NCBI RefSeq assembly: GCF_045679555.1
Contig: NC_092110.1
Coordinates: forward strand, 3,859,390 to 3,923,389
DNA from: Salvelinus alpinus
Taxonomy: Eukaryota > Chordata > Actinopteri > Salmoniformes > Salmonidae
DNA: 64,000 nt
Direction of reading: 5' to 3'
The translations under genes were made by a program, and so were the position numbers. Shown piece by piece: positions 9,201-55,500 of this stretch (position 1 is its first letter; every line of letters starts with the position of its first letter). The notes beneath the pieces are model-generated. The model ran no database searches. It saw nothing but the letters and a program-made list of their open reading frames with translations, and had not been told where the DNA came from.

Positions 9201-11905
9201 AGGGGAGGAGACAGGTTAAAGAAGGACTTTGAAGCCTTGAGACAACTGAGACATGGATTGTGTATGTGTGCCATTCAAAGGGTGAATGGGAAAGGCAAAA
9301 TATTTCAGTGCCTTTGAACGGGCTATGGTAGTAGGTACCAGGCACATCGGTTTGAGTGTGTCAAGAAATGCAACACTGCTATGTTTTTCACGCTCAACAG
9401 TTTCCTGTGTGTGTGTAAAGAATGGTTCACCACCCACAGGATATCCAGTCAACTTGACACAACTGTGGGAAGCATTGGAGTCAACATCGGCCAGCATCCC
9501 TGTGGAAGGTTTTCAACACTTTGTAGAGTCCATTCCCCGCCAAATTGAGGCTGTTCTGAGGGCAAAAGAGGGTGCAACTCAATATTAGGAAGGTGTTCTT
9601 AATGTTTTGTACACTCAGTTTATAGGGTGCAGTAATGGAGCAGTATACTATGTGTGGAAGCTTTTCTTTTTTGTGACCAAATCTGGAAAGGGACCTTAAT
9701 AGGTCCAGGACTACTACCATCCTCGTACTAAAATCATAATGGTACATTTACTGTAAATGGATTTGGATGTTTCTGGATTAGCAGAGATATTACTGCCCTG
9801 GCCGGTATTCACAAAGTGTCCCCAGAGTAGGAGTACTCATCTAAGAACAGGCTACCCTCCTCTTATTCATTATGACCACCCGTACGTAAAATGTATGCAT
9901 GTATGACTAAGTCTCTTTGGATAAAAGCGTCTACTAAATGGCATATATTATTTAAAAGGCTAAATTGCAGCACTCCAACTCCGAGACACTATGTAAATAT
10001 GGGCCTTGTGTTTTGCCATGCAGTATGAGCAGTTCCTGGAACAGTTGTCCGGGAGAATGAAAGTAGACAGTATCGCCACTGACCTGGGCTACGACATGAG
10101 GCTACAGCTCATTCTGTCTCGGGCAGAGCAACTTGTCAAACTAGAAGGGACGGCTTTGGTGGAGAGCAAGACCCTGGCCCACAACCAACAGCGAAAGGTA
10201 CACAACATGAAACTAGTAGCCACTGAACCTACAACTTAAGAGTGTACATATCATTTGTTTATAGTCGGAGGGTTGTTTGCACACCTTACATCGTTGTCGG
10301 TGCATATATAAAACAAAACTCAAGCACACTGGTATTTTTGTATGATCCACATTCCACAATGTACAGTATTTAATGGATCGCACGCCAACATTTGTCAATC
10401 TAGTTACTATCATTACTGTTCCATCTACTAGTATCATTGTATGTTGTGCTTAAACACCTGTTTACCATGTTTACCGTATACCATGTTACCTGCAGTTGAA
10501 GATCCAGAAGGAGCGGTTGGAGAGTAAGGAGCTCCACATGGAGCTGTTGAGGAGGAAGGTGTCTGAGCTAGAGGAGGAGAAGAAGAGTCGCTCAGCCCTG
10601 GCCATGCAGCGAGACGACGCCAATGTGACCGCCCGGAAGATGCAGGTAGCCTAGAGGTTAGAGGGGTGGGCTAGTAGCCAGAAGGTTGCTGGTTCAAGCC
10701 CCAGTGCGGGTGTAAAAAGTGGAAACTGAACCGGCAACTGAAGGGCTGCTGGTCTGTGATCCCAGGTACCATCTCCTGCCATTGTGCCCTTTAGCATGGC
10801 ACTTACCTCCTAAAACTGAACCCCTAAAGCTCCACATCCAGGGGCGAGGTTAAGATAGGCAGAAGCCAAATTTCTGTTTCTTACTAAACGGACGATAAAG
10901 TATGTATTCTACTGTATCTAAAGAATCTATTCTATCTTAAGTATCTATTCTATTCCAAAGAAGAAGGTGGAGCGACTACAGGAGGAACTGGGATCCAGTA
11001 AGGTCTCCATCACAGAGCTCAAGGCCCAGCTGTCACACACCAACGAGCTGAAGGTAGAGGGCAGGACAGCTCAGGCCCACACATCCTCTAGAGGCAGAGT
11101 CATATAACTTCATTTCCTGGCGACTTCCTGTAGCTACAAGATTACATACTGAGTTTGAATAAAAGTTGGTTATTAATACCCTAACCACTGTCTTATATGC
11201 AAATTAGGAATAATTGTTTAAAGACTATACTTTCTAATGTTATGTTGTTGTTAAGTAACATGATCAAAATACATTCATGTCCAATTTGGAATGATGTGTC
11301 TAAGCTCAAAGTCCTGGAGCAGAGTCAGACCAATGCTGAGCAGAGTAAGAGTCTGGAGGACCTGGAGAAGGGCAAGGCCAAGGTGGAGAAGAAGTTCAGC
11401 ACAGCCAGGACAGATCTACAGAGCCAGGAGCATCTGGCCAGGGAGGCCCAGCAGCAGTTGACCAGCCTTAGACAGACCCTGGCTCAGCTCACGGACAGAG
11501 AGAGAGAGGTGGGGAGGATGGATACATAGTCGTATTAATATGCATGTACGCGCACACGCACACACACACACAATATAATTTGATTGAGGAGTACAGAAAA
11601 AGAACATCCGAAACCTGACTGGAAGTATGTTTACTCTGTTGTTTCAGTTGGTAGACTTCCGTATGGTGGTCTCTCAGATGTTAGGTCTGGATGTCTCAGC
11701 CCTGGCCCTTCCAAACTATGAGATCATCAAATCTCTGGAGAGCCTGCTTCACCCCCACCATCACCCCCAGCATGACCTCCACCACCACTCCCTGGCCCTG
11801 TCCTGGCCCTGCCCTACCCACCACCAGAACCACCATCTCCTACAGCTCCAGGACCAAGATAACTCTGGGTCTGTCACATGCCTCTCAGAGGTCCACGGGC
11901 CCTGA
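6225..11905 (+). CDS. ccdc170: Coiled-coil domain-containing protein 170, ten exons, short N-terminus
   Basis: Exons: 6225-6269, 7041-7223, 7481-7666, 7744-7869, 8109-8309, 10024-10197, 10496-10645, 10961-11053, 11305-11508 and 11648-11905. All have GT-AG borders and all are phase 0, giving 539 residues plus stop. The protein is nearly all coiled coil. From exon 2 on it follows human CCDC170: [68 protein letters not shown]170 binds microtubules and is a component of the lumen of ciliary doublet microtubules. The human protein is about 715 residues; the ~180 N-terminal residues before the match are missing, replaced by a 15-residue first exon. Introns hold a MITE, SINE pieces and a Tc1 relic. 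The gene ends tail to tail with syne1. Confidence 0.92.
6339..6535. mobile_element. MITE with TTAAAGGACAA inverted ends
   Basis: Perfect inverted ends TTAAAGGACAA / TTGTCCTTTAA enclose a 197-bp non-coding element in ccdc170 intron 1. Confidence 0.7.
6556..6985 (-). repeat. tRNA-derived SINE, reverse orientation
   Basis: Read on the minus strand, the head contains a polymerase III A box (TGGCGCAGCGGTC) and a B-box-like GGTTCGATCCC, followed by the common salmonid SINE body (CACAATTGGCCCAGC). Relatives lie near 30423, 32419 and 36975. Confidence 0.8.
7041..7223 (+). CDS. ccdc170: ccdc170 exon 2
   Basis: Follows GTCCCCAG and ends ACTG|GTATGT. Codes [14 protein letters not shown]... with the conserved [10 protein letters not shown] helix. 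Confidence 0.92.
7481..7666 (+). CDS. ccdc170: ccdc170 exon 3
   Basis: Acceptor TCTTCCAG, donor ACAG|GTAGGA; 62 residues of heptad-rich sequence ([11 protein letters not shown]...), matching DLLSAVEAKEA of the human protein. Confidence 0.92.
7744..7869 (+). CDS. ccdc170: ccdc170 exon 4
   Basis: Acceptor ATTCACAG, donor AGCG|GTAAGT; codes [20 protein letters not shown]..., equivalent to the human segment with IAALLRGRLSM. Confidence 0.9.
8109..8309 (+). CDS. ccdc170: ccdc170 exon 5
   Basis: Acceptor CCTGTCAG, donor CTT|GTGAGT; contains [11 protein letters not shown] and [14 protein letters not shown], both strongly conserved. Confidence 0.92.
8680..8740 (+). repeat. SINE tail fragment
   Basis: The 3' tail motif CTCTGGATAAAAGCGTCTGC of a salmonid SINE, without a head. 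Confidence 0.65.
8748..9618 (+). mobile_element. Decayed Tc1-type element, family 1, second copy
   Basis: Same family as 2947-3805. Ends are GTACGAAACAATACGAAC and GTTTTGTACACTCAG. It carries an inserted LINE 3' fragment at about 8867-9184 and only broken transposase-like frames. Confidence 0.8.
8867..9190 (+). mobile_element. LINE 3'-end fragment nested in Tc1 relic
   Basis: The sequence interrupts the Tc1 copy exactly where the uninterrupted family copy at 2947 continues. AAATCA occurs at both junctions (8861-8866 and 9185-9190) as a target duplication. The 3' end (GGGGAGCCTAATAATTCAAAG) has the look of an L2/CR1-type LINE terminus. Confidence 0.6.
9870..9955 (+). repeat. SINE 3' fragment
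   Basis: CTTTGGATAAAAGCGTCTAC tail plus ATGCATGTATGACT, the 3' half of a tRNA-derived salmonid SINE. Confidence 0.65.
10024..10197 (+). CDS. ccdc170: ccdc170 exon 6
   Basis: Acceptor GCCATGCAG, donor AAAG|GTACAC; codes [20 protein letters not shown]..., the best-conserved part of the family. Confidence 0.94.
10496..10645 (+). CDS. ccdc170: ccdc170 exon 7
   Basis: Acceptor CCTGCAG, donor GCAG|GTAGCC; codes [20 protein letters not shown]..., aligned with the [17 protein letters not shown] segment. Confidence 0.93.
10646..10830 (+). repeat. tRNA-derived SINE directly after ccdc170 exon 7
   Basis: AGAGGTTAGAGGGGTGGGC and a B-box-like GGTTCAAGCCC mark a tRNA-derived head. It begins within a few bases of the exon 7 donor. 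Confidence 0.6.
10961..11053 (+). CDS. ccdc170: ccdc170 exon 8
   Basis: 31 codons, [14 protein letters not shown]... to SHTNELK, then GTAGAG. Acceptor ATTCCAAAG. Confidence 0.9.
11305..11508 (+). CDS. ccdc170: ccdc170 exon 9
   Basis: Acceptor GTCTAAG, donor GAGAG|GTGGGG; codes [20 protein letters not shown]..., followed by coiled coil. Confidence 0.9.
11648..11905 (+). CDS. ccdc170: ccdc170 last coding exon
   Basis: Acceptor TTGTTTCAG; codes [20 protein letters not shown]... and ends with a His-rich tail and TGA. The His-rich end is longer than in mammals. Confidence 0.93.
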   Translation: MVDFRMVVSQMLGLDVSALALPNYEIIKSLESLLHPHHHPQHDLHHHSLALSWPCPTHHQNHHLLQLQDQDNSGSVTCLSEVHGP

Positions 11906-22400: not shown

Positions 22401-25400
22401 CTGTTTTAATTCCAGGGGCACTGGTTAAGGTCCAGGGGCACTGGTTAAGATTGATGGCATAATGAATTCCACCAAGTATCAGGCAATTTTGGCTGACAAT
22501 CTGGTTGCCTCTGCCGGAAGGCTGGGACTTGGCCGTATGTGGACTTTCCAACAAGACAATGACCCAAAACAGACCTCAAGATCCACACAGAAATGGTTCT
22601 GTGACAACAAAATCAATGTTCTGCCATGGCCATCTCAGTCGCCGGACCTCAATCCAATCAAAAACCTGTGGGCTGAGTTGAAGAGGCCAGTTGATAAGCG
22701 CAAACCCAAAAATGTGAAGGATCTTGAAAGGATCTGCATAGAGAAATGGTCCAAAATCCCTCCAAATGTGTTCCTTAACCTTGTCAAACATTACAGGAAA
22801 AGACCATGCTGTTATCCTTGCCAGAGGTGGTGCCAATAATTATGAAACCTTGATTTTGGTGAAATGTATTTTTGTGGTGGGTTCCATTGAAACATTAATA
22901 AAGTGCAGTATTTCTCACATGTTGGTATTTTGAGTTTATCTCTATAATTATATTGTTTATATTTTTTTAAGTATTGTTTGTGCATTGCCAGTCAGGGGTG
23001 GCAGTAATTTTGGAGCTACTGTATGTGGTAGTAGAGTAGAGGCCTGAGGGAAAAACACTTAATGTGTTGTGAAAAGTGTTATGAAATGTCATGTAATATT
23101 TAACATTGTATATAACTGCCTTAATGTTGCTGGGATCCTTAATAAATACAAACAATTATTACTATTTGTAAAAATATTGAAAAACATAATTCCACGTCGA
23201 CATTATAGGGTATATTTAATCAATTTTAAATGCAGGCTGTAACACAACAAAATGAGGAAAAAGTCAAGGGGTGTGAAAACTTTGAAGGCACCGTACACAG
23301 TACAGTATCGACATCTGAAAGCCAAACGTTACCTGTTGTTTGTGAATCACCACCAATGGGGTCAGCGAGTCCTGAGGCCTTGTCCTCCTCCCCCTTCAGC
23401 TCGTAGCCCACCCTCTTCACCGTGTCTATACTGCCACGACACTCGCCCAACAGACGCATCTACACAACACGACAGGCAGCGGATGGAAAGCATGTCACTG
23501 AGATGTTCACATCATGTAATCCCGCTGAGTAGATACTTATATTACAAACCACATGATTTATGTAGATAAAGACACAATGTTTCCTAAAGACCTTCCATTG
23601 AGACATACAGTACCAGTCAAAAGTTTGGACACACATACTCATTCAAGGGTTTTTCTGTATTTTTACTATGTTCTACATTGTAGAATAATAGTGAAGACTT
23701 CAAAACTATGAAATAACACATATGGAATCATGTAGTAATCAAACAAGTTTTAAACAAATAAAAATATAATTGATATTTGTAAGGGCTGTCGCTTTCCTCA
23801 TCCTCGGATGAGGTGAGGAGAGAAGGATCTTCTAACCAAAATGCGGGTTCAGGGAAATATGCCATCTTTATTTATAAAACGAAAACTGATGACACGAAAA
23901 CAAACACTTTCAAAGCTTACAAAATAACAAAACGACGTAGAACGCAACCTGAACATAAACTCACATCACAAACGTAAACTCACGGACAGGAACGTTACAT
24001 CGAAACACACGAACAGCCAAACAGTCCCGTAAGTGAAAACACATCGACAACGACGAAAGACATCACAGGAGACAATCACCCACAAACAAACAGTGAGAAT
24101 GCCCTACCTAAATATGACTCTTGATTAGAGGAAAACGCAAACCACCTGCCTCTAATCAAGAGCCATACCAGGCAAACCAAAACCAACATAGAAACGAATA
24201 ACATAGACTGCCCACCCAAAACACATGCCCTGACCAAAAACACATAAAAACAACATAAAACAGGTCAGGACTGTTACAGTACCCCCCCCTCAAGATGCGC
24301 ACGCCGGGCGCACAAGCACAAAGTCCAGGGGAGGGTCCGGGTGGGCAGTTGACCACGGTGGTGGTTCCGGCTCAGGACGCTGTCCCCATACCACCATAGT
24401 CCATCCTAACTTCCTCCCTCCAAGAATGTCCACCCTCTTTTGACCCCCACAAAATCCCCTTAACAACATATCTAATAAGGACAACACCGGGACAGAGAGA
24501 TAAATCAAGACAGAGGGATAGATAAGAATATAGAAGTAGATAAAGATAGAGAGGGAGATCAGGATAGAGGGGCAACTCCGGACTGAAAGGCAGCTCCGGA
24601 CAGAGAGACAGCTCTGGACTGATGGGCAGTTCTGGGTATCTAGCCTTTTCAGGCTGAAGGGCAGCTCATGGCTGACTGACGACTCTCGACGCTCATGGCA
24701 GGCTGACGGCTCTCGACGCTCATGGCAGGCTGACGGCTCTCGACGCTCATGGCAGGCTGACGGCTCTCGACGCTCATGGCAGGCTGACGGCTCTCGACGC
24801 TCATGGCGCTCTGACGGCTCTGGCTGCTCATGGCGTGCTGACGGCTCTGGCTGCTCATGGCGCTCTGACGGCTCTGGCTGCTCATGGCGCTCTGACGGCT
24901 CTGGCTGCTCATGGCGCTCTGACGGCTCTGGCTGCTCATGGCTCGCTGGCGGCTCTGGCAGATCCTGTCTGGTTGGCGGCTCTGGCAGATCCTGTCTGGT
25001 TGGCGGCTCTGGCAGATCCTGTCTGGTTGGCGGCTCTGGCAGATCCTGTCTGGTTGGCGGCTCTGGCAGATCCTGTCTGGTTGGCGGCTCTGGCAGATCC
25101 TGTCTGGTTGGCGGCTCTGGCAGATCCTGTCTGGTTGGCGGCTCTGGCAGATCCTGTCTGGCTGACGGCTCTAGCGGCTCCTGTCTGGCTGATGGCTCTA
25201 GCGGCTCCTGTCTGGCTGACGGCTCTGTAGGCTCATGGCAGACGGGCGGCTTTGCAGGCTCATGGCAGACGGGCGGCTTTGCAGGCTCCTGGCAGACGGA
25301 TGGCTCAGACGGCGCTGGGGAGACGGATGGCTCAGATGGCGCTGGGGAGACGGATGGCTCAGATGGCGCTGGGGAGACGGATGGCTCAGATGGCGCTGGG

Positions 25401-28400
25401 GAGACGGATGGCTCAGATGGCGCTGGGGAGACGGATGGCTCAGATGGCGCTGGGGAGACGGATGGCTCAGATGGCGCTGGTGAGACGGATGGCTCTAGCC
25501 GGATACGGCGCACTGTAGACCTGGTGCGTGGTGCCGGAACTGGAGGCACCGTGCTAATGATAAGCACCTCCCTACTAGTGCGGGGAGCAGGAACAGGGCA
25601 TACTGGACCCTGGGGACGCACATTAGGCCTAGTGCGTGGGGCCGGAACTGGTGGTACCGGACTGGGGACACGCATCTCAGGGCTAATGCGGGGAGCAGCA
25701 ACAGGATGCACAGGACTCTGGAGACGCACAAAAGGCTTAGTGCGTGGTGCCGGAATTGGTGATACCGGGCTGGAGACACGCACCATAGGACGAGTGCGTG
25801 GAGGAGGAACAGGGCTCTGGAGACACACTGGAAGCCTGTTACGTGGTGTAGGCACTGGTGGCACTGAACTGGGGCGGGGAGGTGGCGCCGGAAATACCGG
25901 ACCGTGCAGGCGTATTGGCTCCCTTGAGCATTGAGCCTGACCAACCTTACCTGGTTGAATGCTCCCCGTTGCCCGACCAGTGCGGGGAGGTGGAATAACC
26001 CGCACCGGGCTATGTAGGCGAACCGGGGACACCATGCGTAAGGCTGGTGCCATGTAAACCGGCCCGAGGAGACGCACTGGTGGCCAGATATGTAGGGCCG
26101 GCTTCATGACATCCGGCTCAATACTCAATCTAGCCCTGCCAGTGCGGGGAGGTGGAATAACCCGCACCGGGCTATGCACACGTACAGGAGACACCGTGCG
26201 CTCTACTGCGTAACACGGTGTCTGCCCGTACTCTCGCTCTCCACGGTAATTACAGGGAGTAGGCGCAGGTTTCCTACCTGACCTCGCCACTCTCCCTTTA
26301 AGCCCCCCCCAAAGAATTTTTTTGGGTTTTCCCACAGGCTTCCTACCGCTTCGTCGTGCTGCCTCCATTCGCCGGTATCCCTCCTCGCACTGCGCCAGAG
26401 AATCCCAGGCGGGCTCCGGCACTCTCCCTGGGTTGATCGCCCACCTGTCGATCTCCTCCCACGTAGTGTAGCCCAGATCCTTTGTAGGTTCCCTTTCCTG
26501 TCTCCGAGCTAGCTCCTCATATCGCCGCCTCTCTGCTTTCGCTGCCTCCAGCTCAGCTTTGGGGCGGTTATATTCTCCTGGTACCTCCCGGTCTAAAATT
26601 TCCTCCCATGTCCATGAATCCTTGTATTTCTCCTGTTGCCGCTGGTCATGCCGCTTGGTCCTAAGGTGGGTGATTCTGTAACGGCTGTCGCTTTCCTCAT
26701 CCTCAGATGAGGTGAGGAGAGAAGGATCTTCAGACCAAAATGCGGGTTCAGGGAAATATGCCATCTTTATTTATAAAACGAAAACTGATGACACGAAAAC
26801 AAACACTTTCAAAGCTTACAAAATAACAAAACGACGTAGAACGCAACCTGAACATAAACTCACATCACAAACGTAAACTCACGGACAGGAACGTTACATC
26901 GAAACACACGAACAGCCAAACAGTCCCGTAAGTGAAAACACATCGACAACGACGAAAGACATCACAGGAGACAATCACCCACAAACAAACAGTGAGAATG
27001 CCCTACCTAAATATGACTCTTGATTAGAGGAAAACGCAAACCACCTGCCTCTAATCAAGAGCCATACCAGGCAAACCAAAACCAACATAGAAACGAATAA
27101 CATAGACTGCCCACCCAAAACACATGCCCTGACCAAAAACACATAAAAACAACATAAAACAGGTCAGGACTGTTACAATATTTTAGATTATTCAAAGTAG
27201 CCACCCTTTGCCTTGATGACAGCTTTGCACACTCTTGCCATTCTCTCAACCAGCTTCATCTGGAATGCTTTTCCAACAGTCTTGAAGGAGTTCCCACATA
27301 TGATGAGCACTTGTTGGCTGCTTTTCTTTCACTCTGCAGTCCAACTCATCCCAAACCATCTCAATTGGGTTGGGGTCAGGTGATTGTGGAGGCCAGCTCA
27401 TCTGATGCAGCACTCCATCACTCTCCATCTTGGTCAAATAGCCCTTACACAGCCTGGAGGTGTGTTTTGGGTCATTGTCCTGTTGAAAAACAAATGATAG
27501 TCCCACTAAGCGCAAACCAGATGGGATGGCGTATCGTTGCAGAATGCTGTGGTAGCCATGCTGGTTAAGTGTGCCTTGAATTCTAAATAAATCACGACAG
27601 TGTCACCAGCAAAGCAACCCCCACACCATCACACCTCCTCCATTTGTCACGGTGGGAACCAAACATCTCACATTTGGACTCATCAGACCAAAGGACAGAT
27701 TTCCACCGGTCTAATGTCCATTCCTCGTGTTTCTTGGCCCAAGCAAGTATTTTCTTCTTATTAGTGTCCTTTAGTAAACTCATCAAAAAAAGAAATGTCC
27801 TCTGACTGTCAACTGCGTTTATTTTCAGCAAACTTAACGTGTAAATATTTGTATAAACATAACAAGATTCAACAACTGAGACAAACTGAACAAGTTCCAC
27901 AGACATGTGACTAACAGAAATGGAATAATGTGTCCCTGAACAAAGGGGGGTCAAAATCAAAAGTAACAATCAGTGCATTAAGTACTGCAGTGCATCTCCT
28001 CCTCATGGACTGCACCAGATTTGCCCGTTCTTGCTGTGGGATGTTACCCCACTCTTCCACCAAGGCACCTGCAAGTTCCTGGACATTTCTGGGGGGAATG
28101 ACCCTAGCCCTCACCCTCCGATCCAACAGTCCCAGATGTGCTCAATGGGATTGAGATCTGGGCTCTTCGCTGGCCAAGACATTCCTGTCTTGCAGGAAAT
28201 CACACACATTGGTGGCATTGTCATGTTGGAGGGTCATGTCAGGATGAGCCTGCAGGAAGGGTACCACATGAGGGAGGAGGATGTTTTCCCTGTAACGCAC
28301 AGCGTTGAGATTGCCTGCAATGACAACAAGCTCAGTCCGATGATGCTGTGACACACCGCCCCAGACCATGACGGACCCTCCACCTTCAAATCGATCCCGC

Positions 28401-43500: not shown

Positions 43501-46500
43501 CTTGGTCGTCATGGTGCCGCTTGCTTGGTGGTGCCCCTTGCTTAGTGGTGCTTAGTGGTGTTGCAGACTCTGGGGCCTTTCAGAACTGAGATCATGTGAC
43601 AGATCATGTGACAGATCATGTGACACTTAGATTGCACACAGGTGGACTTAATTGAACTAATAATGTGACTTCTGAAGGTAATTGGTTGCACCATATCTTA
43701 TTTAGGGGCTTCATAGCAAAGGGGGTGAATACATATGCACACACCACTTTCCAGGTTTTCATTTTTTATTATTTTTTTAAACAAGTTATTTTTTTTCATT
43801 TCACTTCAACAATTTGGACTATTTTGAGTATGTCCATTATATGAAATCCAAATGAAAATCAATTTAAATTACAGGTTGTAATGCAACAAAATAGGAAAAA
43901 CACCAAGGGGATGTGTAACGGTTTTCTTCTTGGGATGAAGGAGAGGACCAAAATGCAGCGTAGCCAGTGCTCAACATGTTTAATTAAACAATAACCGTGA
44001 ACACTTAAAAAATAACAAAATAACAAACCGTGAAAACCGAGACAGTCCTATCTGGTGCAGAACAAACACAGAGACAGGAAACAAACACCCACAAAAGCCT
44101 ACTGCCTATGGCTACCTTAAATATGGCTCCCAATCAGAGACAAATGAATGACAGCTGTCTCTGATTGAGACCCAATCTAGGCAGCCATAGACATAACTAG
44201 ACAACCTAACAAACACTATCCCATACACATACAACACCCATAGACTAACCAAACACATACAACATACAATGCCCACCCCAACTCACGCCCTGACCAACTA
44301 AACATAATCAAAATAACATAAAAATAGGTCAGGAACGTGACATAACCCCCCCCCCCCTCAAGGTGCGTACTCCGAACGCACCACCAAAAGTCTAGGGGAG
44401 GGTCTGGGTGGGCATCTGTCCACGGTGGTGGCTCCGGCTCTGGACGCTGTCCCCACACCACCATAGTCACTCCCCGCTTCCGTATCCCCCACCCAATGAC
44501 CACCCTCCAACTAAACCCACTTAACTGAAGGGGCAGCATCGGGATAAGGGGCAGCACCGGGATAAGGGGCAGCACCGGGATGAGGGACGGCAGCTCCGGG
44601 CTGAGGGACGGCAGCTCCGGGCTGAGGGACGGCAGCTCCGGGCTGAGGGACGGCAGCTCCGGACTGGCTGGCGGATCCTGGCTGGCTGGCGGATCCTGGC
44701 TGGCTGGCGGCTCTGGCTGGTCATGGCTGGCTGACGGCTCTGGCTGGTCATGGCTGGCTGACGGCTCTGGCTGGTCAGATCTGGCGGAAGGCTCTGGCTG
44801 ATCCGGTCTGGCGGAAGGCTCTGGCTGATCCGGTCTGGCGGAAGGCTCTGGCTGATCCGGTCTGGCGGAAGGCTCTAGCGGCTCCTGTCTGGCGGACGGC
44901 TCTAGCGGCTCCTGTCTGGCGGACGGCTCTGTAGGCTCATGGCAGACGGGCGGCTTTGCAGGCTCATGGCAGACGGACAGTTCAGACGGCGTTGGGCAGA
45001 CGGGCAGTTCAGGCGCCGCTGGGCAGACGGGCAGTTCAGGCGCCGCTGGGCAGACGGGCAGTTCAGGCGCCGCTGGGCAGACGGGCAGTTCAGGCGCCGC
45101 TGGGCAGACGGGCAGTTCAGGCGCCGCTGGGCAGACGGCAGACTCTGGCCGGCTGAGACGCACTGTAGGCCTGGTGCGTGGTACCGGAACTGGAGGTACC
45201 GGGCTAAGGACACGCACCTTCAGGCTAGTGCGGGGAACAACAACAAGGCACACTGGACTCTCGTGGCGCACTCTAGGCCTGGTGCGTGGTACCGGAACTG
45301 GAGGTACCGGGCTGAGGGCACGCACCTTAGGGCGAGTGCGGGGAGAAGGAACAGTGCGTACAGGGCTCTGGAGACGCACAGGAGGCTTGGTGCGTGGTGC
45401 CGGAACTGGAGGCACTGGGCTGGAGACACGCACCATAGGGAGAGTGCGTGGAGGAGGAACAGGGCTCTGGAGATGCACTGGAAGCCTGGTGCGTGGTGTA
45501 GGCACTGATGGTACTGAGCTGGGGTGGGAAGGTGGCGCCGGATATACCGGACCGTGAAGGAGGACACGTGCTCTTGAGCACCGAGCCTCCCCAACCTTAC
45601 CAGGTTGAATGGTCCCCGTAGCCCTGCCAGTGCGGCGAGGTGGAATAGCCCGCACTGGGCTATGCAGGCGAACCGGGGACACCACCTGTAAGGCTGGTGC
45701 CATGTACGCCGGCCCGAGGAGACGTACTGGAGGCCAGATACGTTGGGCCGGCTTCATGGCATCCGGCTCGATGCCCAACCTAGCCCTCCCAGTGCGGCAA
45801 GGTGGAATAGCCCGCACTGGGCTAAGCATGCGTACTGGGGACACCGTGCGCTTTACCGCATAACACGGTGTCTGACCAGTACGACGCCCTCTCACTCCAC
45901 GGCAAGCCCGGGGAGTTGGCTCAGGTATCCAACCCGGCTTCGCCACACTCCCCTTTATCCCCCCCCCAAGAAATTTTTGGGTGAGCCTCTCGGGCTTCCA
46001 GCCTCTCTTACGTGCTGCCTCCTCAATCCACCGCTCCTGGGCTGTGGCTGCCTCCTTCTTCTCCCGAGAGCGGCGATTCTCTCCAACCCTTCCCCAGGGT
46101 CCTTTTCCGTCCATGATCTCCCAAGACCATTCCTCCTGTGTCCAGTAGTCCTGTGTACTGGGCCGCTGCTGCTCCCCGTTGCTACGCTGCTTGGTCCGGG
46201 TTTGGTGGGTGTTTCTGTAACGGTTTTCTTCTTGGGATGAAGGAGAGGACCAAAATGCAGCGTAGCCAGTGCTCAACATGTTTAATTAAACAATAACCGT
46301 GAACACTTAACAAATAACAAAATAACAAACCGTGAAAACCGAGACAGTCCTATCTGGTGCAGAACAAACACAGAGACAGGAAACAAACACCCACAAAAGC
46401 CTACTGCCTATGGCTACCTTAAATATGGCTCCCAATCAGAGACAAATGAATGACAGCTGTCTCTGATTGAGACCCAATCTAGGCAGCCATAGACATAACT

Positions 46501-49500
46501 AGACAACCTAACAAACACTATCCCATACACATACAACACCCATAGACTAACCAAACACATACAACATACAATGCCCACCCCAACTCACGCCCTGACCAAC
46601 TAAACATAATCAAAATAACATAAAAATAGGTCAGGAACGTGACAGGATGAATACTTTTGCAAGGCACTGTACGTTTTCTTGAATTTGTTCTGGATTTGGG
46701 GACTATGAAAAGACCCCTGGTGGCATGCCTGGTGGGATAAGTGTGTGTGTCAGAGCTGTGTGTAAGTTGACTATGCAAACAATTTTGGATTTTCAACACA
46801 TTAATGTTTCTTATAAAAAGAAGAAGTGATGCAGTCAGTCTCTCCTCAACTCTTAGCCAAGAGAGACTGGGCATGCATAGTATTTATATCAGCCCTCTGA
46901 TTACAATTAAGAGCAAACCGTGCCACTCTGTTCTGCGCCAGCTGCAGCTTAACATGCCCCTCCATGCACCCTCTGTGACATTTAGGAAGATTTTAACCCA
47001 CTTAATCCCAAAATGTCTCCATCATTGTAAAGCCCTAGTTATTTTGTTGCTTTGACAAAGTCATTTATGAAGATTATTATTTAGTTTGTGTGATAAGTGA
47101 TTAACTTACGTCAGTCCCTCATTTTAAGGTCAACCCTGTTACATAAACTGAACTCTCATTTTAATATGGTGAAACTATTCCTTTATAAATATTTATCAAA
47201 AAGAATGAACATCTTATAGTGAACATCTTATAGTCAAATCATAGTGTAAAAGCAGGTGAGCTGGTTCTACTCTTTTTGGCAATTTTGGGGTGTTTTGTGG
47301 TGGAAATCTGAGCCAGTTCGAGCCAGTTCGAGCATTACACCCATCAACCCTGTTACCAGTGGCGACCCGTCATTCAGGGCATGAGCCCCACATTTTTTGT
47401 GGGTTACCTATTTTGCATATTATTTTGGCATTAATAAGTGTCACATATCAGTTTGCAAACAAAGTAAAAAAAATAAAAAAACCACAAAATCATTGAGTTA
47501 ATAAAGCCTCCATACAAACATGGTCTCCTTTTACCTTTCTTGAACAAGGCAGCTCCAAATGCAGGTGTTTCAGCCTAGCTCAGTGCTTTCTGTGGTGGTG
47601 GGGTAGCCAGCGGAAAATACGGAGCGTAGGGGTTTGTAATGTTCTCTAGTTGCGCCGTGATTGTCTCCGTGTCCTATCACTCATGGGGACACTACGTCAC
47701 TGCCAAATCTAAAAGTAGAGCTCGAAAATTCAAGCACTTCCAAACCACTCATTGGTTGTCGACTTGATTCATGATGATGACTGCTAGCTAAGATTTTGAA
47801 AGTGTGATGTTGACATGATCAGTCCAATCAAAGCAACTGTAGATATAACGTGACTTGACGTAATTTTATCTGTGGCCAATGACCTTGAGCCTTTTTGGAT
47901 GGGCACTTCTAATGTAACTATGCTGCCATCATCAAATATTGTAAGAGTTTTCATTGTCTGCTTATATGCCCCCTTTATTTATCCTACGGTTCTGACTTGG
48001 TGTACTGGGAGAACACTGTAAGAACGGCCCATGTTCTGAATTCTGTCTCTGTACACTTGTACAAGTGCTGAACAAATAGTTATATTGACTACGTCCATCC
48101 TAGCTTGCTCATTAATGTCTTGATCGAAATAACGGATTGCCTCTTATCTACTTGTTGTCCCCTTATGCCATAGTTTGTACATCTCAATTGTCAGTAGAAA
48201 CCATATCAGCCATATCAGTTTTTTTAAAAGGCAGTAAATGAGGCTGAATGAACTGTTTCGCTGGCAGACAAGGCTACGCTGATAGCCAGGTGTAGCAGTG
48301 GTAAGGTGTTGGGACTGCTGTTGGGACTCTGCTATTGGGACAGCTTCATGTAGGCCCTAACATTTTGTGGGCACCGTTTGTCACCGTTATAGTGCAATTA
48401 ATATATTATTTAGTGTTGTGGCTTTGCCGCCATGCATCCCCCCAATTTTGGGGGGTTTGCCCCATCAAGATTTACATGCTAAAATCGCCACTGCCTGTTA
48501 CCCATCGATAGACAGGATAGAAATATTTTTAACAATAAAAATGTTTTTGTGAAGATTGTATTCCATTGCCATTTCCTGTTGCACAACAACAAGCTTCCAT
48601 TCCTCCTGTCAAAAGGGGATTTTATGGTTGTCAATCGTCAACCCCGTTACTTTATTTGGCACTTACTAGAGTCATTTTTTTATGAAGTTGAACATATGCT
48701 CTTCATGGCAGAATGTAAAAATATTTAAACAAATTAGGACGAAGTTATACTTCTCAAAAGACACCGAATTGGTGGAACAACCCAGTAATACAATCCATTT
48801 CCTGATTACTTGGATCATGAACCGCAATGCCATGTAATGACCTGGCTATTATGTTCATCACATCCTTAGTGAGTCAGTACTGCAGACCAGCTCCTGGCAT
48901 TGGTGTGGGGAATGTTGGAGAAATGTTGTAATTAGATCAGACCCATAAAGGTGCCAAGTAAGTTTGTCTATGTTCCTTCTGCTACCGCACGGCAAGCGGT
49001 ACCGGAGCGCCAAGTCTAGGTCCAAGAGGCTTCTAAACTGCTTCTACCCCCTAGCCATAAGACCCCTAAACATCTAATCTAGTCTGGATACCCAGACTAA
49101 TTACATTGCCCCCCCCCCTCTCCACCTCTTTACACCACTGCTATTGTCTGTTGTCATCTATGCATAGTCACTTTAATAACTCTACCTACATGTACATACT
49201 ACCTCAACTAACCGGTGCCCCCGCACATCGACTCTGTATCGGTACCCCCCTGTATATAGTCTCGCCATTGTTATTTTACTGCTGCTCTTTAATGACTTGT
49301 TACTTTTATCTCTTATTCTTTCCGTGTTTTTTTGAAACTGCATTGTTGGTTAGGGGCTCGTAAGTAAGCATTTCACTGTAAGGTCTACACCTGTTGTGTT
49401 TGGCGCATGTGACCAATACAATTTTATTTGATTATAATTACATCAGTTAAATATACCTCCAAAACAAGGTGTTCTAAAGCCTCGAAAGTCATTATTGTCA

Positions 49501-52500: not shown

Positions 52501-55500
52501 ACCCAACGCATTGTGGGCAGCTTGTGGAATGCTACCCCAAACGTTTGACCCAAAATAAACCATTTAAAGGCAATGCTACCAAATAATAATTAAGTGTATG
52601 TAAACTTCTGACCCACTGGGAATGTGATGAAAGAAATAAAAGCTGGAATAAATCATTCTCTCGACTATTATTCTACTACTTAAAATAAAGTGGTGATCCT
52701 AACTGACCTAAGACAGGGAATTTTTACTAGGATTAAATGACAGGAATTCTGAATAAATAAATGTATTTGGCTAAGGTGTATGTAAACTTCCGACTTCAAC
52801 TGTATGTGTATCAACACACTTTACATACTGAGGCAGTGTACTGTACCTTTCATCCACCTGTCCCTGCTCCAGCATCCTCTGGCCATCACTGATTATGGAG
52901 TGAAGGATCTGCTGACGACTGAACATCTCAGCTTGGAATAGCTGCAGAGAAAACACATTCAGATCTGGTTAACTGCATCTTAGATAGCAACATTGCAGTA
53001 ATTATTGCACCATAGCAGTCCTGATGACTCTATGGAATCCAGACGTCCCAAATCCCAGCATGCAAAGCTGGATGAAATTATGTCATCACAACCAGAACTG
53101 TTTCAGAACAAGTTGTAATCTGGATTGAAGTCACTATAACAAGTTTTTCCGGCTGGGTTCTATTCCAGCAGGACTCCTCCAGTACCTCGTGTGCTCTCTG
53201 TTGCTCCATCAGACTCTGGTAGTTCCCAGAGATCCCCACGGCTAGCTTCTCCTCCGTCTGTACCAGGAACTCCATCCACGTCTCACACTTCTCCAGGAAC
53301 GTCTGGTGCTGCAACAGGAACGACTGCAGTTTACTGAGGAGAGACCAAGAACCAATAATATCAGACCCAAAAACCTTCAGTCAATTAAATAATTATGGGC
53401 CCGATATAGAGTTAAGATAAGTAGCCCCAACTCAAGACTTTCTCTTAATTCATTTATTGACGTAGATGGGAGACTTGTGCGGAAATTCTAGTTAAGCACA
53501 CAGATCTCAAGTCAGAATAAGTGCCCAATGTCATTTAATATTTCACGAATTGACCTTAAATCTCTTTGAAAAAACGTCAGTCTTTGAAGTTATTTCATGA
53601 ACTTCAGTTTTCAACCTTACCTGAATCTCTCAGTGGTTTGGGCATTGGCTGAGGACCAGCTCCGGTTAAGGTTCTGCATGCGTTTGATCTCGGTGTCGTT
53701 AAGAGGAAGCCGATAGCCCAGCTCATTCAGACGTTCCAGGTCAGGGGCCATGCTACTGAATCTCAGAATCTTTCTCTGCAGGGAGAACAAGAGCATAACT
53801 TGTAGTGAGTCTCAGTGACATTAACTCACCCCAGGACAATGGCTTTTTCTAATTGTCTAATATACTGTTTGTAGTCTTCTGTAGCTCAGTTGGAGCATGG
53901 CGCGTGTAACGCCACAGTAGTGGGTTCGAATCCCGGGACCACCCATACCTAAAATGAATGCATGCATGACTGTAAGTCGCTTTCGATAGAAGTGTCTGCT
54001 AAAAGGCATATATTGTCTAAGAATTGTTTCCTTTCCTTTATCGATATAATCTAAAATAATGGACCATGTAAAAGACTAGCCTAATGAGCTTCCACCATAT
54101 TGTTTTCACCTGTCAAGTCTTCTCCAATGAGTGTACACGAGGAGAAGAAAGGAGCAAAGGATTGAGTTTTTGACCTTTTTTTATAGTTGAATCACAGTCA
54201 TATAGCTAGATCACGGTGCTGACTTACCTTGAGTTCCTCCATGCGGTCCTGGATGATGGACAGGTCAGAAGAACCGTTGGGATCTTGGACCTTCAGAGCC
54301 TCCTCGGCCTCCACCATCCAGCGCCCCAACGAATCCAGCTGCTCACTGAAGGTCTCATAGTCCTGGACTCCCATCTGGAGGAGGGATTGGAGGACAAGAG
54401 ATGTATTTATTTATACATGCAAAATGTATCCAGGTGAGTCCCATTGAAATGTAAATACTTTTTTTCAAGGTCAAGAGGAATGAACCAATGGCTAATGAAG
54501 CAACTGAAAATGACATTCTTCGGAAGATCTCAGAAGCATGAGGTTGCACTAACTTCTCAACGTGGTAAAATCTTGTCTTGTTGGGTAAATCTGGTCCCAT
54601 ATTCCCCTGTACCTGTAGTGTAATGAGCTGCCTGCTGAGGGCCTGCTCCACGGTGGCCAGGCGCTGGGTTAGAGAGAGGTGGTCTGACTGGACGGCGGAC
54701 GCTGCAGAGGTGTCCACCTGTTGCTTCAGCTGATCTCCCAGCTCCTGGAGAACCTGTAGAGATGCCTGCACTGGAACCTGAGCCCGCAGCAACTCCTGGA
54801 GAGACACCACCATACACCAACACACATGAGTGTAACAGAACACAAATCATCTATTATCACAAAGCAATATGACCAAAGGATCAAGGATCATTGTTGACTG
54901 AAAGCTTAGGACATTAAACCGGGAAACTTGCATCTGATTAAAGTGTGCCACTTCTTTCCATAATAGACCATATAGGTGTTATGATTTTTATGAATAATGA
55001 CTAAATGATGTATACATTTAACGTAGAACTATAACTAACAGAATTCTACCCTGTCACTGTATGACTGAATGAAATTGATTAGAATTCATAAATCTAAATC
55101 TGATGTGTGTAGTTTTAGTCAGAATTAGAACAAGGACTTTTTGTTCCTTTTTAGTATGTAAGCAGGGTGCAAGTGTGAAACAAATGATAAGAGGAGCTAT
55201 CGACAGACAAGATGTACTACTGTGTTCCTTTCAGGACATTCTGTTCCCACCCAGGGAGGGGAGAGACCGTGGGCTTGTAGTAGATTGTGGCAGACAGGTG
55301 GCAGACAATGTATGAAAAGGAGAAGACTTGTGAACTATATTGTCATTGTCTTAGAGGAGGAGGGACAGTTATGACGAAATGAGAGGTATATAAACCAATG
55401 TACATGTAAGGATGGGCAGAGCTCTCGTAAATAAACCTGCTGACTATTGTAGACTGGCCTCTGTCTGTTTCATTTCAATAAGAACCTTACAAATTCTTAG

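What the first reader, a model, noticed from the sequence alone, without database searches (positions are those of the whole stretch)
43914..46644. LTR family appears to prime reverse transcription with its own RNA 5' end
In copy 2 the ten bases 46205-46214, next to the 5' LTR, read AAACACCCAC on minus. They are exactly complementary to GTGGGTGTTT at 46394-46385 in that LTR. In copy 1 the same place reads AATCACCCAC (26666-26675), complementary to GTGGGTGATT at 26982-26973. The one difference between copies is compensated on both sides. In both, the LTR sequence starts exactly 31 bases after the first base of a TATA-like box, where a transcript would begin. No TGG of a tRNA primer site is present. 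Tf1 and sushi-type elements are known to use the RNA 5' end as primer; here the arrangement is inferred for elements that carry no polymerase.
Basis: partly seen in the sequence, partly recalled or inferred. Interest (0 to 1): 0.88.

Follow-up and report, generated by a model that had tools for sequence, protein, structure and literature searches.

The report
Fish retroelement that primes itself
A salmonid-fish retroelement with more than two thousand genomic copies appears to start copying itself with the first ten letters of its own RNA instead of a borrowed tRNA; dozens of copies in which the two matching ten-letter sites differ in step support this.

Summary
Both window copies have the stated 10-base match between a TATA-defined presumed RNA start in the LTR and the bases just inside the 5' LTR. 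In the whole genome (2.37 Gb, salmonid) a pattern that leaves those ten bases free has 2068 matches (reversed control 0). Of 98 copies read, 72 carry the exact complement of their own site, each 30-33 bases after a TATA-like box; with the start found without using the copy's own site, 73 of 91 match exactly (site shuffled among copies: mean 21.1, maximum 37 in 10,000). Six primer/site versions occur; at least 17 joint changes are needed on a (weakly resolved) U3 tree. TGG, the tRNA mark, follows in 0 of 91. A helix around the site, as in the Tf1 'pretzel', is well supported; a third helix only in part. Gag-bearing sushi-type elements of the same genome show the same junction with 11-base self-matches in 11 of 12 stretches read. 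The present family encodes no recognisable polymerase, only a proline-rich ORF that starts inside the LTR and reads through the primer site. Self-priming is known from the Tf1/sushi group: a new variant of a known kind. RNA starts and primer cleavage are inferred.

The parts
46216..46644 (-). copy 2, 5' LTR (TGTCACG...CGTTACA)
43914..44342 (-). copy 2, 3' LTR
   Evidence: 1 difference in 429
46420..46425 (-). copy 2, TATA-like box TATTTA, first base 31 before the presumed RNA start
46385..46394 (-). copy 2, presumed RNA start and self-primer GTGGGTGTTT
   Evidence: start inferred from the TATA-like box
46205..46214 (-). copy 2, primer site AAACACCCAC, one base (G) inside the 5' LTR end
46334..46347 (-). 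copy 2, helix B 5' arm CTGTCTCGGTTTTC
46215..46228 (-). copy 2, helix B 3' arm GAAAACCGTTACAG, abutting the primer site
46247..46266 (-). copy 2, helix C 5' arm in U5
46181..46197 (-). copy 2, helix C 3' arm downstream of the primer site
44216..46279 (-). copy 2, ORF (687 aa) whose ATG lies in the 5' LTR; it reads through primer site and helix arms and ends inside the 3' LTR
44346..44359 (-). copy 2, polypurine tract GAGGG..., 3 bases before the 3' LTR
   Evidence: read directly
46645..46649 (-). copy 2, target site duplication CATCC (5' side; 3' side 43909-43913)
26677..27177 (-). copy 1, 5' LTR
23778..24278 (-). copy 1, 3' LTR
   Evidence: 4 differences in 501
27008..27013 (-). copy 1, TATA-like box TATTTA
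26973..26982 (-). copy 1, presumed RNA start and self-primer GTGGGTGATT
26666..26675 (-). copy 1, primer site AATCACCCAC
26909..26923 (-). copy 1, helix B 5' arm CTGTTTGGCTGTTCG
26676..26690 (-). copy 1, helix B 3' arm CGACAGCCGTTACAG
26733..26746 (-). copy 1, helix C 5' arm
26651..26660 (-). copy 1, helix C 3' arm
24290..26764 (-). copy 1, ORF (824 aa) from an ATG inside the 5' LTR through the primer site to just before the 3' LTR
24282..24291 (-). copy 1, polypurine tract, 3 bases before the 3' LTR
   Evidence: read directly

Best explanation
The two copies belong to a large LTR retroelement family of salmonid fish, without a recognisable polymerase of its own, that starts reverse transcription with the first ten nucleotides of its own RNA. 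Shown: the RNA start predicted by the TATA-like box and the ten bases one base inside the 5' LTR are complementary and differ in step across copies; a helix flanks the site. Inferred: transcription starts at that base; the 5' end folds back on the site; a reverse transcriptase/RNase H supplied by another element, perhaps the gag-bearing sushi-type family with LTR ends TGTCACG/CGTGACA, cuts after about base 10 and extends the new 3' end across U5 and R. When the plus strand later copies the primer, the RNA start sequence is written back into the primer site, which would keep the pair matched and also rewrite codons of the ORF that spans the site.
For: Cis match 72 of 98 against trans 301 of 7394, reversed site 0 of 98. 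Start located without using the copy's own site: 91 of 100 located, 73 exact; site shuffled among copies gives mean 21.1, maximum 37 in 10,000; versions 26, 20, 12, 11, 3, 1 copies; at least 17 joint changes on the U3 tree, e.g. L087 and L057, U3 98% identical, different primer and correspondingly different site. The last five bases, which the locating rule does not touch, agree in 80 of 91 (shuffled mean 22.8, maximum 39). A second set of 20 copies chosen by another arm sequence: 15 exact, among them one copy each with the GTTT and GGTT versions. All 72 exact matches lie 30-33 bases after a TATA-like box; the base before the match is T in 68 of 72 while the base after the site is C (fixed by the search pattern), so pairing usually stops at the presumed start. 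TGG in 0 of 91. Helix C: in 91 copies the paired third positions are T 91, T 89, C 84, C 89, whereas the bulged positions vary (A 59/G 31/T 1; C 47/T 42/G 2; T 42/A 23/C 19/G 7). Window copies: helix B holds 12 pairs in both with two double changes (my count); it is reached in 35 and 13 of 1000 shuffles; own arms pair better than swapped ones in A and B. Gag-bearing elements of the genome: 11-base self-match at an ACA-G junction in 11 of 12 stretches (L137 with TATTTA 31 bases before; ten with GCCGGATCGTT/AACGATCCGGC), helix C reached in 10 (L137) and 1 (L129) of 1000 shuffles.
Against: No RNA 5' ends, no cleavage data, no polymerase shown to act on it. The co-variation is shared among related copies; the sign test on well-supported branches alone is not significant (same way in a mean of 1.8-3.6 of 3-8 pairs by version, opposite way 0.0; under the earlier rule opposite way 0.5 for one version). 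The count '91 of 91 within one base' is weak, because the locating rule asks for GTGGG with at most one change and shuffled sites give a mean of 66.5 (maximum 77). Eight of 91 copies carry two different valid versions in LTR and site. Helix B: longest Watson-Crick run no better than chance (132 and 143 of 1000); perfect in its fixed geometry in 23 of 74 copies (6% in trans); mean rank 0.28. Helix C: longest run in copy 1 at chance (626 of 1000), rank 0.404. Copies with an altered helix C 3' arm (GCGGC) keep CGCTGC in 18 of 20, leaving a G-U pair and no compensation. In the gag-bearing elements helix B is at chance (809 and 150 of 1000), and ten of the eleven have no box of the kind used for the present family.
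Confidence: 0.9

Rival explanations
1. The 5' end pairs with the site for another purpose (RNA dimerisation, packaging, translation control) and a different, unseen primer starts cDNA synthesis.
For: The site lies within the ORF and near its start codon; no biochemical data exist here.
Against: The pairing ends at the predicted RNA start and one base inside the LTR, where a primer must sit; it is flanked by the Tf1-type helix; this is the site and geometry of the known mechanism and of gag-bearing elements in the same genome.
Confidence: 0.06
2. A tRNA, or an internal piece of a tRNA, is the primer and the self-match is incidental.
For: Most LTR elements use a tRNA; half-molecule tRNAs are used by some copia-type elements.
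Against: TGG in 0 of 91 copies. A tRNA-matched site would not change in step with the LTR in six versions. Internal tRNA matches were not tested (no fish tRNA set at hand).
Confidence: 0.03
3. The match is chance or reflects only common descent of G/T-rich LTRs.
For: Single-copy chance is not tiny: 251 of 5000 shuffles for copy 2. Copies are related.
Against: Cis 72 of 98 against 4.1% in trans; 63 pairs of copies with U3 at least 93% identical but different primers, each with its own matching site.
Confidence: 0.01

Closest known systems
Tf1/Tf2 and other fission-yeast Tf1/sushi elements (Tj1, Tosmo, Tcry)
   Same: RNA 5' end (11 bases in Tf1) complementary to the site beside the 5' LTR; site flanked by further duplexes with the LTR, the 'pretzel' (passages read in PMC10085805, PMC7175516, PMC4600332).
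   Different: Those encode Gag, protease, RT and integrase; here no Pfam domain in either ORF. Here ten bases, six versions within one genome, and the ORF starts in the LTR and runs through the site.
Gag-bearing sushi-type elements of the same genome (DUF4939 matches; L129-L136, L138, L139 and L137)
   Same: ACA-G junction, self-match directly behind it, strong helix C. The larger family has LTR ends TGTCACG/CGTGACA, against TGTCACG/CGTTACA in copy 2, and open frames up to 1577 aa: the best candidate helper (inference; its polymerase was not examined).
   Different: 11 instead of 10 bases, other primers (GCCGGATCGTT; GCTCAGTGTTT), gag ATG just behind the site and not in the LTR.
Sushi-ichi and other vertebrate Tf1/sushi elements
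   Same: Self-priming stated as a common feature of the group (PMC10085805 passage).
   Different: They carry a polymerase. Butler et al. 2001 is not held; known here only through citations.
Ty1 (recalled, no call)
   Same: ORF begins inside the LTR and the primer site lies within it.
   Different: Ty1 uses a tRNA and encodes a polymerase.
TRIM-type non-autonomous LTR elements
   Same: No polymerase, presumably mobilised in trans.
   Different: TRIMs are described as under 1000 bp with a tRNA site (PMC6934838 passage); here 2.7-3.4 kb with a long ORF and no tRNA site.

Membership tests
Tf1/sushi self-priming elements | Site next to the 5' LTR complementary to the (presumed) first 10-11 bases of the RNA | tested here: met
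   72 of 98 exact; 73 of 91 exact
Tf1/sushi self-priming elements | RNA really starts at the self-primer | tested here: inconclusive
   TATA-like box 30-33 bases before in 72 of 72 exact copies; no RNA ends available
Tf1/sushi self-priming elements | Duplex between U5 and sequence 3' of the site | tested here: met
   (third-position constraint); against it: no compensation in the GCGGC copies and weak in copy 1 alone
Tf1/sushi self-priming elements | Duplex between R and sequence 5' of the site | tested here: inconclusive
   Two double changes between the window copies; perfect in 23 of 74 copies against 6% in trans
Tf1/sushi self-priming elements | RT and integrase of the chromovirus/Tf1-sushi clade | tested here: not met
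   No Pfam family in either ORF, which fills most of the internal region. It works like the group but is not filed as a member
LTR retrotransposons in general | TG...CA LTR pair, short TSD, polypurine tract before the 3' LTR | tested here: met
tRNA-primed LTR elements | Site beginning TGG, complementary to a tRNA 3' end | tested here: not met
   TGG within 15 bases in 0 of 91 copies
TRIM | Under 1000 bp, no long ORF, tRNA site | tested here: not met
   Lengths; ORFs; no TGG

The most novel reading that the evidence does not exclude
In this family self-priming writes the RNA start into the coding sequence: the plus strand copies the ten-base primer back into the site, which lies inside an ORF begun in the LTR, so each change of primer version also changes residues of the protein (Arg-Asn-Thr-His, Arg-Ile-Thr-His, Arg-Thr-Thr-His). 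Copies with two different valid versions (8 of 91) would be caught between rounds, or be products of one subfamily's RNA end priming another's RNA in trans. The six versions would then act as specificity groups.
Probability: 0.35. Interest if true: 0.78.

Novelty: new variant of a known kind. Interest (0 to 1): 0.67.

Why it matters
In the passages I read, self-priming was shown by experiment in Tf1 and proposed elsewhere from sequence matches. Here one vertebrate genome holds over two thousand copies with six natural primer/site versions that differ in step, a mutational series that tests the mechanism without engineering. It also suggests that a polymerase-less family can keep the whole self-priming apparatus, names a candidate helper family with the same LTR ends, and gives sequence-level targets (RNA start, site, helper enzyme) for bench tests. 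It warns annotators that absence of a tRNA site does not mean that an element cannot be reverse-transcribed.

Tried and rejected
Looking for copies outside the genome failed: DNA pattern in viral contigs, 0; protein in viral contigs, none confirmed of 4 stretches; alignment in genome contigs, none of 69, in viral contigs, none of 22. Protein databases gave relatives (all named ones salmonid) but no DNA.

Gag hypothesis for the ORF: Pfam 0 of 2; AlphaFold of residues 1-200 with 19 sequences, mean pLDDT 61.6, pTM 0.24, four helices and otherwise no structure; too weak for a fold search, so none was run. dN/dS between the two copies 0.61 over 625 codons: weak constraint at most.

Helix B as an exact 8-bp rule for all copies was rejected. 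A compensatory change in helix C was looked for and not found; in five of those 20 copies no exact primer was found, and only 380 bases upstream had been fetched. The first start finder took wrong sites in U3 for some copies (61 of 92 exact; shuffled mean 18.4, maximum 34; 14 joint changes); I changed the rule (box preceded by CA, site nearest the primer site) after seeing that result and reran it; both are given. Nine of 100 copies had no start under the new rule and are outside the 91.

Partner search: a pattern with the same site followed by a gag-like start gave 3 matches, all with the GGACCAAGCAGCG arm of the present family. The DUF4939 search scored 150 of 3997 candidates; I read 12 upstream stretches. 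With a TATA-like box required I saw only L137 and at first took the rest as negative; that was wrong: without this requirement ten more have an 11-base self-match at the LTR end, and L128 has the site but no primer in the stretch. I raised the confidence from 0.87 to 0.90 for this. Among 30 loci with 1.5 kb downstream, 30 had at least one match to the ORF, so none of them was a gag-bearing partner on this evidence.
Full report
WHAT IS THERE. The window holds two copies, both on the minus strand, of a 2.7-3.4 kb LTR element. Copy 2 (46644-43914) has LTRs of 429 bp with one difference and the duplication CATCC; copy 1 (27177-23778) has LTRs of 501 bp with four differences and the duplication AATAT, and sits inside a repeat whose two parts continue on either side. 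The LTRs of the two copies are alike only in blocks: U3 125 of 195 aligned bases, the remainder of R-U5 69 of 143, but 16 of 18 aligned bases in the 30 columns from the presumed RNA start. The window lies at G000:C25:3859390-3923389 of a 2.37 Gb assembly; all named protein relatives are salmonid (that these genera are salmonid is recalled).

THE 10-MERS. GTGGGTGTTT (46394-46385) and AAACACCCAC (46214-46205), and GTGGGTGATT (26982-26973) and AATCACCCAC (26675-26666), are exact complements. TATTTA begins 31 bases before each presumed start. Shuffled LTRs give as long a match anywhere in 42 and 251 of 5000 cases, so one copy alone is weak evidence.

CO-VARIATION IN THE GENOME. The pattern GTTACAG-N10-C-N(3-20)-GGACCAAGCAGCG leaves the site free. 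It has 1022 + 1046 matches; the reversed pattern has none. I read 98 of the 100 listed places. In 72 of 98 the exact complement of the copy's own site lies in the 500 bases upstream, once each, 30-33 bases after a loosely defined TATA-like box; 20 more are one base off, six further. Sites tested against LTRs of copies with another site match in 301 of 7394 cases; the reversed site in 0 of 98. With the start located without the copy's own site (a box, then 29-33 bases on a 10-mer whose first five are within one of GTGGG), 91 of 100 copies (98 plus the two of the window) could be placed: 73 exact against a shuffled mean of 21.1 and maximum of 37 in 10,000 (an earlier, poorer rule gave 61 of 92 against 18.4 and 34). 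All 91 are within one base, but that count is inflated by the rule (shuffled mean 66.5, maximum 77); the last five bases, which the rule does not touch, agree in 80 of 91 (shuffled mean 22.8, maximum 39). Versions among exact copies: GTGGGTGGTT 26, GTGGGTGATT 20, GTGGGTGTTT 12, GTGGGTAGTT 11, GTGGGATGTT 3, GTGGGTTATT 1. On a tree of U3 alone at least 17 changes of version are needed among exact copies (14); the tree is weakly resolved, and the sign test limited to well-supported branches is not significant, with no pair going the opposite way on average (0.0). Another 20 copies chosen by a different arm (189 in the genome) gave 15 exact matches, among them single copies with the GGTT and GTTT versions.

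WHERE THE PAIRING STOPS. Among 72 exact copies the base before the primer is T in 68 and G in 4, while the base beyond the site is C in all (required by the pattern); base 11 is G in 67, A in 4, T in 1, facing the G of ACAG. The duplex thus usually ends at the presumed first base and at base 10. In Tf1 the first 11 bases pair and RNase H cuts between bases 11 and 12 (PMC7175516 passage).

THE FLANKING HELICES. Tf1 needs two more duplexes between LTR and site-adjacent sequence (PMC10085805 passage). Helix C pairs CGCTGC-NNN-TTGGTCC in U5 with GGACCAAGCAGCG downstream. Its energy in copy 2 is reached in 3-5 of 1000 shuffles, in copy 1 in 51 (last part of U5) or 366 (whole R) of 1000; by longest Watson-Crick run, 6 and 626 of 1000. 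In 91 copies with an in-frame Ala-X-Trp (7 of 98 lacked it) the paired codon third positions are T 91, T 89, C 84 and C 89 of 91, while the bulge varies: a constraint beyond the protein, although descent also keeps bases alike. Copies with a changed 3' arm (GCGGC) keep CGCTGC in 18 of 20, which leaves a G-U pair; no compensation. Helix B (CTGT + 8 pairs with 8 + ACAG) holds 12 pairs in both window copies, with two double changes and two wobble changes by my count from the arms; own-arm energies are -15.2 and -14.5, swapped -5.7 and -11.1. Its energy is reached in 35 and 13 of 1000 shuffles, but its longest run is at chance (132 and 143 of 1000). Across copies it is perfect in 23 of 74 against 6% in trans, and own arms rank 0.28 on average (helix C 0.404; chance 0.5). 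I regard C as well supported and B as supported in part of the family. A and C cross each other, so an ordinary folding program shows one or the other: copy 1's ensemble contains the primer duplex (pair probabilities 0.86-0.96), copy 2's does not (at most 0.001).

THE ORF. In copy 1 an 824-aa and in copy 2 a 687-aa frame begins with an ATG inside the 5' LTR and runs through the primer site. In 86 of 91 genomic copies such an in-frame ATG exists; in 56 it is the first ATG of the presumed RNA. Relatives keep Trp-Ser, Arg-X-Thr/Ser-His and Thr-Lys. Of the 41 proteins returned by the searches contain Arg-X-Thr/Ser-His somewhere and 15 do not; in one of the 26 (P0007) the motif lies elsewhere, by my reading. 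No Pfam domain, no confident fold. The product is therefore not shown to be a Gag.

GAG-BEARING ELEMENTS OF THE SAME GENOME. I read 1.6 kb upstream of 12 of the 150 scored DUF4939 matches (that DUF4939 marks RTL/sushi gags is recalled). Ten (L129-L136, L138, L139) have the LTR end CGTGACA (CGTGATA in L134), one G, then AACGATCCGGC, and its exact 11-base complement GCCGGATCGTT 242-356 bases upstream, inside an LTR that begins TGTCACGAAT; a gag-like ATG follows the site closely. L128 has the site, no primer in the stretch. L137, another family, has TATTTA, 31 bases on GCTCAGTGTTT, and 301 bases further AAACACTGAGC directly after CTGACAG, then an ATG after seven bases. Helix C is reached in 1 of 1000 shuffles in L129 and 10 of 1000 in L137; helix B in 150 and 809. 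Some of these elements have open frames up to 1577 aa; their polymerases were not examined. The first of these families shares with copy 2 the LTR start TGTCACG and differs in one base of the last seven (CGTGACA/CGTTACA); as LTR ends are what integrase recognises, it is my candidate helper (inference). It does not share the primer.

HOW IT MOST LIKELY WORKS. Pol II starts at the G of GTGGG (inferred). The RNA end folds back to the site, helped by helix C and perhaps B. An enzyme from another element cuts and extends the primer (inferred; no polymerase recognised). Copying the primer into plus-strand DNA regenerates the site (established logic of retroviral reverse transcription, applied here by inference), which would explain why the two differ in step and why 8 of 91 copies carry two different valid versions.

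NOVELTY. Self-priming is described as a common feature of Tf1/sushi elements and predicted for some plant lineages (passages). My searches for a self-priming salmonid or polymerase-less family (listings seen, passages read only in PMC4600332, PMC10085805, PMC3601003, PMC6317226, PMC6934838, PMC7175516) showed none; most subscription papers, including Butler et al. 2001, are not held. I file it as a new variant: works like Tf1/sushi, membership of the clade not met for want of a polymerase.

Noticed in passing
window 46430-46472 and 27017-27061 (U3, just before the TATA-like box): Both copies have an inverted repeat shortly upstream of the TATA-like box (TCTCAATCAGAGACA...TGTCTCTGATTGGGA; CTCTTGATTAGAGG...CCTCTAATCAAGAG) whose arms differ between copies yet stay (nearly) complementary.
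   Followed up: no
proteins P0006, P0010, P0011, P0032, P0037, P0038: Pieces resembling this ORF appear inside database proteins with pyrin, immunoglobulin or zinc-finger domains or names such as MLC1-like; exonised insertions or annotation errors in salmonid genomes.
   Followed up: no
G000:C4:57372201-57379703; G000:C1:105337348-105342599: Primer sites recur every 2.1-2.7 kb on one strand, suggesting tandem copies that share LTRs.
   Followed up: no
window 9892-9947 and 53959-54012 (+): Two UnaL2 LINE 3' elements above the Rfam cut-off.
   Followed up: no
L129-L136, L138, L139 (upstream of DUF4939 matches): A gag-bearing family with an exact 11-base self-match and LTR ends TGTCACG/CGTGACA, whose presumed start lacks the TATTTA-type box of the present family.
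   Followed up: partly
window 16507-63710, minus-strand open stretches: Several open stretches look like spectrin-repeat coding exons, so both elements probably lie in introns of a large gene in sense orientation (gene identity not tested).
   Followed up: no
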